The notes beneath the pieces are model-generated. The model was not told the DNA's origin. It ran no database searches and worked only from the letters and a program-made list of their open reading frames with translations. This document shows positions 60,603 to 63,866 of a stretch of 64,000 nucleotides of DNA, one piece after another. This stretch comes from Bacteroidota bacterium (GTDB lineage Bacteria; Bacteroidota; Rhodothermia; Rhodothermales; UBA10348), in the NCBI GenBank assembly GCA_022567305.1, contig JADFHF010000001.1, positions 62,001-126,000 of the forward strand. Reading direction: 5' to 3'. A program made the translations under genes and the position numbers. The first letter of the stretch is position 1; each line of letters begins with the position of its first letter.

Positions 60603-61130
60603 TCAAGCATCTTCCACCGCCGAGCGAGCCGCCATCACCAGAAGCTCAGGATCGACACGAACCCGGTAATTCGGATTGGCGTAAACGAATCGAATCATCC
60701 CATCCAGGCCGACGACAAACGTGGCCGGTACGGGTAGGATATGATGATCGTATCCCGATGCTGCCTCCAGGTCGATGCCGGCCATGGCGTATCGATCGAG
60801 CGTTTCTTCAGATACTCGAAAAGCCAATCCGTAGTCTCTCGCAACGTCCATTTCATTGTCCGAAAGAAGGGTGTAATCAATGCCATCAACTCCGAGACTG
60901 GGCCTCAGCGCGTCTTCCTGGTCGGCGCTGACAAAAAGCACATCGTAACCCAGGCCGATCAATTCCTTTTCGGCTGTTCTCAAAGAGGCGAGCTGGCGGT
61001 TGCACCATGGACACCACCCACCTCTATAAAAAATGATGACAGCGGGCCGATCCAGGTTGTCAGAATCAAACGAATACAGGGACCCATCCGGCCGAGGGAT
61101 CTCAAAGGATGGCGCCCGTAATCCGGCCAT
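60603..61130 (-). CDS. AhpC/TSA-type peroxiredoxin-like protein
   Basis: 175 residues from the ATG at 61130. The thioredoxin-fold active site is GGWCPWCNRQ with Cys40 and Cys43 (CxxC, unlike the single N-terminal Cys of classical peroxiredoxins), followed by DVLFVSADQED and a late cis-Pro region PVPATFVVG. A redoxin with unknown substrate. The ATG overlaps the TGA of a small lipoprotein-leader ORF as TGATG; the codons just upstream in this frame (HPL) also look like the family N-terminus, suggesting a frameshifted lipoprotein gene. Confidence 0.85.
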   Translation of the reverse strand: MAGLRAPSFEIPRPDGSLYSFDSDNLDRPAVIIFYRGGWCPWCNRQLASLRTAEKELIGLGYDVLFVSADQEDALRPSLGVDGIDYTLLSDNEMDVARDYGLAFRVSEETLDRYAMAGIDLEAASGYDHHILPVPATFVVGLDGMIRFVYANPNYRVRVDPELLVMAARSAVEDA

Positions 61131-61276
61131 CAATGGATGTCGGCTGTGGCCGCAACGCGATCATCGTCGTCTGTCGTTGTTGTCTCGACAGAATCGGCGG
61201 AGCATCCAATCGTAAGAAGGGCCATCAGGGTCACGCCAGATAGGATCGAACGAATAGGTCTCATAGGAGTGGGCAT
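61130..61276 (-). CDS. small lipoprotein-signal ORF (48 aa) upstream of the redoxin
   Basis: 48 residues starting at the ATG at 61276 (or the in-frame ATG at 61264). It has a lipoprotein signal, RSILSGVTLMALLTIGC, with lipidated Cys25, followed by an acidic Thr/Asp-rich stretch (VETTTTDDDDRVAATADIH) and TGA. It overlaps the redoxin start by one base. Either a genuine coupled small lipoprotein or, more likely, the displaced signal peptide and linker of the redoxin. Confidence 0.65.
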   Translation of the reverse strand: MPTPMRPIRSILSGVTLMALLTIGCSADSVETTTTDDDDRVAATADIH

Positions 61277-61431
61277 TTTTCGAAGAGGCAGAAATCAAGA
61301 ATAATATAGATCTGGCCCGTATCTACCTCACTGAGTGGTTGAATTCCGAATGCTGTTTCACGTTCTGCGCATTTCTTCGGAAGCGACTATCTTTCTGCGT
61401 GTTTACCCCACTCATTTCTCCACGAATACAG

Positions 61432-62673
61432 ATGCCCTCGTTCGTTTCTCACCTCGAAGGCGCCATTGATGGCGCTATTCTTGAACCACGCACGGTTCAA
61501 ACGCTACATGAGAACCGCCCGATCTGGGTGCGATACGACCTGGATGCCGTTCGCGATGCTGTTCGCAAGGAGGACTTTGCGTCCCGAGCACCGACCATGT
61601 GGCGATATCGAGAGCTCCTTCCCATCGAGGATGAATCCGACATTGTCACTCTGGGTGAGGGGATGACACCGCTTCTTGACTCACCTCGCCTGGGAGCTTC
61701 GTTGGGGTTGAACGATCTATGGATCAAAGACGAGTCGCAACTTCCGACGGGCTCCTTCAAAGCTAGAGGACTGTGCGCGGCGGTTTCGATGGCCACCGCG
61801 TTCGGACAGAAACGAGTAGCCATTCCGACGGCGGGAAATGCAGGTGGAGCGCTGGCTGCGTACGCGGCGCGTGCCGGAATGGAATCTTTCGTATTCATGC
61901 CGAAAGACACACCAACAGTGAATCAGTTCGAGGCTGTCTCGTTTGGAGCCAAGGTTTACCTCGTGGACGGTGTCATTACGGATTGCGGAAAAATCGTTGC
62001 ACAAGGAAAAGAATCGGCCGGGTGGTTCGACATGTCTACGTTAAAGGAACCGTACCGTATTGAAGGGAAAAAGACGATGGGTCTTGAGATCGCGGAACAG
62101 TTCGACTGGAACTTACCGGATGTGATTATTTACCCGACCGGAGGAGGGACCGGCTTGATTGGAATGTGGAAAGCATTCAATGAACTCCGAGAGTTGGGCT
62201 GGTTGAATTCCGAAAAAATGCCAAGAATGGTTTCAGTTCAATCTACCGGCTGCTGCCCCGTCGTAATTGCCTTTGAAGCAGGTGAAAGGTTTTGCACTTT
62301 TTTTGAGAATGCATCAACCGTGGCTAAGGGCCTCCGCGTTCCAGCGGCCATCGGTGACTTCATGATCCTTGATGCGATACGGGAAAGCGGCGGAACCGCC
62401 ATCGCCGTTGAGGAAGAACGGATTCCGGGTTGGATGAGAAAAGGGGCGTCGCTGACGGGCATTTCGATCTGCCCCGAGACCGCCGCTTGCATTGGAGCGG
62501 TCGAATCGCTAACGGCGAGCGGCTGGATTCAAGAGGACGAACGGATTGTAATATTTAACTGCGGCGCCCTCCAGAAGAACGTAGATCTATTTGACGAACA
62601 TCTTCCCGTCATCCGGGCAGATGCGGAAATCGAATGGAGTTCGGACACCCCCATTCTGGAGGAATCCCTATGA
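61432..62673 (+). CDS. thrC: threonine synthase
   Basis: 413 residues from the ATG at 61432; the frame is open to 61339 but MPSFVSHLEGAIDG is the natural start. PLP-binding Lys110 lies in DESQLPTGSFKARGL, followed by IPTAGNAGGALAAYAARAGM and YPTGGGTGLIGMW. It converts O-phosphohomoserine to threonine. Related PLP enzymes such as threonine dehydratase are less likely given the N-terminal LGEGMTPLLDSPRLG. It overlaps the next ORF by 4 nt (ATGA). Confidence 0.9.
   Translation: MPSFVSHLEGAIDGAILEPRTVQTLHENRPIWVRYDLDAVRDAVRKEDFASRAPTMWRYRELLPIEDESDIVTLGEGMTPLLDSPRLGASLGLNDLWIKDESQLPTGSFKARGLCAAVSMATAFGQKRVAIPTAGNAGGALAAYAARAGMESFVFMPKDTPTVNQFEAVSFGAKVYLVDGVITDCGKIVAQGKESAGWFDMSTLKEPYRIEGKKTMGLEIAEQFDWNLPDVIIYPTGGGTGLIGMWKAFNELRELGWLNSEKMPRMVSVQSTGCCPVVIAFEAGERFCTFFENASTVAKGLRVPAAIGDFMILDAIRESGGTAIAVEEERIPGWMRKGASLTGISICPETAACIGAVESLTASGWIQEDERIVIFNCGALQKNVDLFDEHLPVIRADAEIEWSSDTPILEESL
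62658..62662 (+). promoter_or_regulatory. strong Shine-Dalgarno for the small membrane-protein gene
   Basis: GGAGG ends 7 nt before the ATG at 62670, inside the last codons of thrC. It fixes this start and implies translation coupled to thrC. Confidence 0.8.
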
Positions 62674-63140
62674 AAACTTTTCTTCGATTTTTGCTCCTGG
62701 TTGTCATTCTAAATGTTTTGCGGTATGGCATCGCCGGCCTTATCGAAGGCCCGCTCATCATGCCGTCTCTCACGGGTGTCATGGAGGCTCATCCGGACGT
62801 TTTCACCGCTGAGTTTACGACGCTTGACTAGGTAACTTCCTTCGTCTATAACTTCGTGATGTGGTTGGTCGTGGTCTGGATCTACCACCTTGCCCACGCC
62901 AATCTAGCCGGTTCGGATATTGTTAAGAGCCTGAAAGTATTTGGAATAGCGTGGCTCTTTTTCGCGTCTGTGAGTCTGATTTATATGAATCACTATGGAG
63001 TCGGTCGGGAGTTCTATCACTGGAATATCCTCGACGGGGTGATTGCATTTACAGTTGTAGGCCTAGCCAATGGCCTGCTGTATCGACGCGTGATGGGCAT
63101 GGCTCAGAAGAACGCAGAACCCGCCGAGATCGATTCTTAA
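62670..63140 (+). pseudogene. small multi-helix membrane protein gene interrupted by in-frame TAG
   Basis: A single frame runs from the ATG at 62670 to TAA at 63140, broken only by TAG at 62829-62831. The first part (53 residues) has a membrane helix (FLRFLLLVVILNVLRYGIAG) and ends AEFTTLD. After TAG the frame continues VTSFVYNFVMWLVVVWIYHL and FGIAWLFFASVSLIYMNHYG, with two or three further helices, for a product of 156 codons. TGG to TAG (Trp) is the simplest origin. An ATG at 62856 could restart the second part. Other genes here end in TAG, so TAG is not recoded generally. Confidence 0.7.
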
Positions 63141-63745
63141 TTGCGTTTGACAACCATTTCGAAGAAGATAACAATGTCGTCTTTGGTGTGAAGCGCACCG
63201 AACAGTGCCGTTGGGGGTTTCATTCCAAAATCGGACATCTTCATTTCATGGGAGCCGGAAAATACAATCGGTCCCAGTTCCGACATCCTCACTCCAACGA
63301 TCATCTCGATCTGATGGGTCTCACCGGCTATAGTCAGGTTCCCTATTGTGCCGATAATAAAGGAGTCCGGTGCCGCGCCTTCGACTCGACTTGTCTCGGC
63401 CTCAAGGAGTTCATAGGTGATTTCACCATGCTCACTCGCCTTGAGCGTTCGCAGCATTAAGCGGTCCATGATGGAGCCTTTCCCACCCGACATCTCTTCG
63501 ACGACAACGCTTAGCTTCACGGATTGAATAAACGGGACCCCGTCGGAATCGGTGCTGAATTCCATCCAGCCTCCCAAACTGTCGGCAGCCACCGACCAAT
63601 CGCTCTGATTCGAAGTGCCTTCTACCTTGAGCGTACTTTCTACAGCAAAGGCACTTCGCTCCTGGGCGTGCGTCGACTGCGGGAGAAAAATCACAAGTAC
63701 AACGACGACAGCAACGGCGGCAGAGAAATGTCGAAAAAGAGACAT
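63137..63745 (-). CDS. YceI-family secreted lipid-binding-like protein
   Basis: 202 residues from the ATG at 63745 (a codon further upstream is possible). Signal peptide with core AAVAVVVVLVIFLPQ and cleavage after THAQ. The mature part is a lipocalin-like barrel: VESTLKVEGTSNQSDWSVAA, a middle LRTLKASEHGEITYELLEAE and GNLTIAGETHQIEMIVGVRM. YceI proteins bind isoprenoid-type lipids in the periplasm. It overlaps the end of the interrupted membrane-protein gene by 4 nt, convergently. Confidence 0.85.
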   Translation of the reverse strand: MSLFRHFSAAVAVVVVLVIFLPQSTHAQERSAFAVESTLKVEGTSNQSDWSVAADSLGGWMEFSTDSDGVPFIQSVKLSVVVEEMSGGKGSIMDRLMLRTLKASEHGEITYELLEAETSRVEGAAPDSFIIGTIGNLTIAGETHQIEMIVGVRMSELGPIVFSGSHEMKMSDFGMKPPTALFGALHTKDDIVIFFEMVVKRN

Positions 63746-63866
63746 AATTGACTGACCCACAAAGATGGCTGAATCATTGTATTTCGATATCCCGCGAATG
63801 TACGGAACACAGAGAACACCCAGAATAGCGAAAGCTTAGGATCGAGATTTTTTCAGTCCTTTGGAA

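What the first reader, a model, noticed from the sequence alone, without database searches (positions are those of the whole stretch)
60603..61276. Lipoprotein leader and redoxin in adjacent frames, joined by TGATG
A 48-codon ORF encodes a textbook lipoprotein signal plus acidic linker and ends 1 nt into the redoxin start. The redoxin frame upstream of its ATG reads HPL, a natural continuation. A one-base deletion in an ancestral lipoprotein-redoxin gene would yield exactly this. If real, the redoxin is now cytosolic and the leader makes a tiny lipoprotein; otherwise it is a sequencing error or programmed frameshift.
Basis: partly seen in the sequence, partly recalled or inferred. Interest (0 to 1): 0.55.

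Follow-up and report, generated by a model that had tools for sequence, protein, structure and literature searches.

The report
Exported redoxin gene split by deletion
A gene that in related bacteria makes one redox enzyme carrying a membrane-anchor signal is here broken by a small deletion just after the signal, so the signal and the enzyme now sit in different reading frames; this is an ordinary broken or newly split gene, or possibly an assembly error.

Summary
In detail: on the minus strand a 48-codon lipoprotein-signal ORF (61276-61130) overlaps the redoxin ATG (61130) by one base, TGATG. Homologues settle the ancestry. All 8 intact copies in the same bacterial family carry lipoprotein signal, linker and redoxin in one frame. 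In 82 of 83 assessable homologues an export signal lies in the redoxin frame; none has the window's two-ORF overlap. In 2 family genomes the gene neighbourhood also matches and the redoxin is unbroken. Both frames of the window keep halves of one conserved linker (VAxTA....PLxxG), and that stretch is 7 nt shorter than in all 8 relatives: the lesion is net -7 nt, not one base. The TGATG falls out of a Leu-Met codon pair read out of frame, also present in intact relatives. The redoxin domain is undamaged (36 of 37 family-invariant residues; confident fold from the ATG). Best reading: a recent genuine frame-breaking deletion; the redoxin, if made by reinitiation, would stay in the cytosol. Assembly error cannot be excluded: no congener or reads were available, though sampled stretches of the assembly showed no convincing frameshift elsewhere. 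Programmed frameshifting is unlikely. Low interest.

The parts
61130..61276 (-). 48-codon leader ORF: lipoprotein signal (lipobox LLTIG^C) and acidic linker; remnant N-terminus of the ancestral gene (start possibly 61264)
   Evidence: aligned with the N-termini of 8 relatives
61131..61160 (-). zone where both frames are open; site of the frame change, 7 nt shorter than in 8 of 8 relatives
61128..61132 (-). TGATG: leader stop overlapping the redoxin ATG by one base; product of a Leu-Met codon pair read out of frame
60603..61130 (-). redoxin (AhpC/TSA) domain ORF from the ATG, CPWC active site intact
   Evidence: Pfam PF00578 E 3.2e-20; 36 of 37 family-invariant residues kept; AlphaFold2 pLDDT 90.7

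Best explanation
The locus is an exported, lipid-anchored peroxiredoxin-like gene whose single reading frame was broken recently in this lineage by a deletion in the linker (net 7 nt against relatives). Shown: the ancestral one-frame gene, the shortened linker, the intact redoxin domain. Inferred: ribosomes that read the leader stop at TGA and make a lipidated peptide of about 24 residues; some reinitiate at the overlapping ATG and make a redoxin without a signal, which would stay in the cytosol. The envelope function is thus lost or moved, and the gene is on the way to being a pseudogene or a fission product.
For: 8 of 8 intact family homologues carry lipobox signal, linker and redoxin in one frame; 82 of 83 wider homologues carry an in-frame export signal, against 4 and 2 of 83 in the other frames. 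The gene order YceI-PALP-redoxin-dnaK-pgsA is the same in G006 and G012, with intact fused copies. The leader frame ends in RVAATADI and the redoxin frame begins in PLMAGLRAP: two halves of the relatives' VAxTAxxVxPLLPGM. Length from V to P is 20 nt here and 27 nt in 8 of 8 relatives; single 7-column gap in the DNA alignment. In 138,269 bp of this assembly covered by relatives' proteins no convincing frameshift was seen, with 75 of 87 simulated one-base deletions detected. The neighbouring membrane gene at 62670-63140 is also broken, by an in-frame TAG, with a full-length homologue in G232, so local decay is plausible. Another family genome, G022, holds only a remnant of this redoxin.
Against: The redoxin domain shows no decay (36 of 37 invariant residues; end branch 0.51, close to its family relatives' 0.24-0.59), so either the lesion is very young or it is not in the real genome. 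The 7 nt could be an older in-frame 6-nt shortening plus a one-base error. No second genome of the genus is held and no reads could be inspected.
Confidence: 0.6

Rival explanations
1. Sequencing or assembly error: the living organism has the one-frame gene, and the draft assembly lost bases in the linker.
For: Draft of 115 contigs; the redoxin domain is undamaged; no congener confirms the lesion.
Against: The difference is 7 nt, not a homopolymer base, and the leader has no homopolymer of 5 or more. No convincing frameshift elsewhere in 138 kb of compared coding sequence, which bounds the rate (about 2.5e-5 per base at 95%, my arithmetic, corrected for sensitivity) but still allows up to about 1.6 per 64 kb.
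Confidence: 0.28
2. A settled two-gene arrangement: a mini-lipoprotein and a cytosolic redoxin made by termination-reinitiation at TGATG, kept by selection.
For: TGATG overlaps are a known setting for translational coupling (PMC6728339: abstract and passages read); the ATG-started redoxin is predicted to fold fully and keeps its active site.
Against: 0 of 83 assessable homologues have it. TGATG needs no selection: the same hidden TGATG sits in 3 of 83 one-frame homologues with a Leu-Met pair at that place (L005, L006, L046). No SD-like run before the ATG (by eye), though that paper says Bacteroidetes hardly use SD.
Confidence: 0.08
3. Programmed -1 ribosomal frameshifting joins the frames and makes the full lipoprotein.
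For: The redoxin frame is reached by a -1 shift and is open for 10 codons before the ATG.
Against: No X_XXY_YYZ heptamer, strict or relaxed, in the leader and no homopolymer of 5 or more; relatives need no shift; the joined product would still lack about 2 residues of the conserved linker.
Confidence: 0.03

Closest known systems
One-frame lipoprotein redoxins of the same family at the same locus (G006 = L002, G012 = L003, G005 = L005)
   Same: Orthologous domain (52-59% identity); next to the PALP enzyme and dnaK in all three, and the full order with YceI and pgsA in G006 and G012; lipobox signal and VAxTA....PL linker
   Different: Signal and redoxin are in one frame; the linker is 7 nt longer
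AhpC/TSA peroxiredoxins of the Bcp/PrxQ and AhpE type
   Same: Pfam AhpC-TSA; fold match to Bcp4 3hjp, TM 0.78, and AhpE 1xxu, TM 0.75
   Different: Far below NCBIfam cut-offs for any named subfamily (39 against 140 bits for PRK09437); CPWC motif within FYRGGWCPWC
Overlapping gene pairs with TGATG termination-reinitiation (PMC6728339, abstract and passages read)
   Same: One-base stop-start overlap
   Different: Here it arises from a broken single gene, and no relative examined has it

Membership tests
AhpC/TSA redoxin (PF00578) | Pfam match above the gathering score | tested here: met
   72.7 bits against 26
AhpC/TSA redoxin (PF00578) | Active-site cysteines of this subgroup (FYRGG[WF]CPxC) | tested here: met
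   FYRGGWCPWC; one change, Y to W, against 8 relatives
Exported or lipid-anchored redoxin subgroup (the homologues collected here) | Export signal in frame with the redoxin | tested here: not met
   82 of 83 homologues have it; the window does not
Frameshift pseudogene | Intact one-frame orthologue at the same place in relatives | tested here: met
   (G006, G012)
Frameshift pseudogene | Loss of constraint on the coding sequence | tested here: not met
   36 of 37 invariant residues kept, ordinary branch length; expected if the lesion is very young
Programmed -1 frameshift gene | Slippery heptamer in the overlap | tested here: not met
   none, strict or relaxed
Programmed -1 frameshift gene | Two-frame layout conserved in relatives | tested here: not met
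   0 of 83
Translationally coupled gene pair | Short stop-start overlap | tested here: met
   TGATG
Translationally coupled gene pair | Translation of the second gene depends on the first | not testable with these tools
   needs reporters

The most novel reading that the evidence does not exclude
A newly fixed gene fission: one deletion has turned an envelope-anchored peroxiredoxin-like protein into a cytosolic enzyme translated by reinitiation, plus a free lipidated mini-peptide, and both are now kept. It would be a snapshot of protein relocation by gene splitting.
Probability: 0.07. Interest if true: 0.4.

Novelty: new member of a known kind. Interest (0 to 1): 0.17.

Why it matters
If real, it is a small, clear example of how a short deletion can uncouple an export signal from an enzyme while leaving a ready-made restart codon, so an envelope protein could move to the cytosol in one step. 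For annotation it warns that the 48-aa 'small lipoprotein' and the 'cytosolic redoxin' should not be taken as two independent genes.

Tried and rejected
First frameshift control: the query set held shadow ORFs of the relatives, which gave 221 internal stops, most of them spurious. It was replaced by 823 non-overlapping ORFs of 150 aa or more, and only that run is used for the rate. Its 7 frame-change pairs come from 4 queries at 3 places and are neighbouring sensor-kinase and response-regulator genes (read by eye from the translations). Its one internal stop looks like a shadow-ORF match (by eye).

I considered that a lost YceI-redoxin operon link caused the decay. Rejected: the intact copies in G006 and G012 have the same PALP gene in between. 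I considered reassignment of TAG because of in-frame TAGs nearby. Rejected: TAG ends 34 of 98 well-matched genes. The tree is poorly resolved and serves only for branch length. Two literature searches gave nothing on this family; PMC3091736 (outline and abstract seen) concerns another domain. No claim that the case is absent from print is made.

Full report
What is there. On the minus strand, 61276-61130 encodes a 48-residue ORF with a lipoprotein signal (MRPIRSILSGVTLMALLTIG^C after a possible earlier ATG) and an acidic linker. Its TGA overlaps by one base the ATG of a 175-residue AhpC/TSA redoxin, 61130-60603. The redoxin frame is open for 10 codons before that ATG.

Homologues. The window lies in a 3.76-Mb draft of 115 contigs, 95.6% complete. 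No other genome of its genus is held. The family holds 27 genomes; 10 match at E up to 1e-12, counting the window's own. Eight of the other nine are intact (L002-L009, 43-59% identity); the ninth (G022, L012) is a remnant lacking the start and about 65 internal residues, close to a contig end. All eight intact copies have signal, lipobox cysteine, linker and redoxin in one frame. The lipobox was judged by eye for all eight; the script's pattern missed L005.

Wider set. A scan of genome contigs gave 80 loci, the best 80 of 579. Of the 83 assessable, 82 have a hydrophobic export segment upstream in the redoxin frame; the same rule gives 4 and 2 of 83 in the other two frames. The threshold is my own. 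Only 16 of 83 passed the script's lipobox pattern, so most distant homologues appear to have ordinary Sec-type signals. The exception, L062, shows a signal-like stretch in another frame and may be a second broken copy. None of the 83 shows the leader-redoxin overlap seen in the window.

The junction. The relatives share a linker end VAxTAxxVxPLLPGM. In the window the leader frame ends RVAATADIH and the redoxin frame reads PLMAGLRAP: two halves of that one motif in two frames. From the V codon to the P codon there are 27 nt in all 8 relatives and 20 nt here. MAFFT places a single 7-column gap in the window there, with the other 8 rows ungapped. So the net change is -7 nt. Whether it came in one step cannot be told.

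Why TGATG. Wherever Leu is coded xTG and followed by Met ATG, reading the other frame gives TGA overlapping ATG. Three of 83 homologues (L005, L006, L046) have this hidden TGATG at the same place in one-frame genes. The overlap is a by-product, not evidence of a designed coupling. It could still serve for reinitiation, which is known at such overlaps (PMC6728339; abstract and passages read).

Is the redoxin still sound? Within the domain 37 columns are invariant in the 8 relatives; the window keeps 36, the change being Y to W between the active-site cysteines. Its end branch (0.51) is like those of its family relatives (0.24-0.59). The ATG-started protein is predicted to fold with mean pLDDT 90.7 and matches Bcp/PrxQ and AhpE structures. 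So the lesion is young, or the domain is still used, or the lesion is not real.

Error or mutation? Using 823 non-overlapping ORFs from parts of G013 and G009 against 338,824 bp of this assembly, 206 matches cover 138,269 bp. No convincing frameshift appears; the 7 candidate pairs are neighbouring two-component genes. Of 87 simulated one-base deletions 75 were detected. This excludes a grossly indel-rich assembly but allows about 1.6 errors per 64 kb at 95%. In favour of real decay, the next gene but one (62670-63140, a small membrane protein) is broken by an in-frame TAG, with a full-length homologue in G232, and TAG is a normal stop here (34 of 98 genes). I favour a real deletion about 2 to 1 over error.

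Surroundings. Order in the window: pgsA(-), dnaK(+), redoxin(-), PALP enzyme(+), small membrane gene(+), YceI(-). The same order, without the small gene being detected, holds in G006 and G012; G013 and G011 have YceI next to the redoxin and then dnaK.

Verdict. An ordinary event: an exported redoxin gene split by a small deletion, with assembly error as the main rival.

Noticed in passing
window 62670-63140 (+): Small membrane-protein gene of about 156 codons interrupted by an in-frame TAG at 62829-62831; a full-length 158-aa open frame exists in G232 (about 48% identity to each half). No relative in the other 26 family genomes.
   Followed up: partly
L134 (own genome, contig C60) about 9541: Histidine-kinase-like ORF with an in-frame TAG before its ATPase part; possibly another broken gene.
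   Followed up: no
L062 about 900-1090: The only homologue of 83 without an in-frame signal; another frame just upstream reads RYLLALCCVLVIALIAVIG, so it may be a second frame-broken copy, in an Armatimonadetes MAG.
   Followed up: partly
L012 1501-1800 (G022): Redoxin remnant lacking its start and about 65 internal residues, directly after an open YceI-like gene and close to a contig end.
   Followed up: partly
window 60603-63760: YceI-like gene and this redoxin are immediate neighbours in G013, G011, G025 and G008 and separated by a PALP enzyme gene in G006, G012 and here; a conserved YceI-redoxin pairing.
   Followed up: partly
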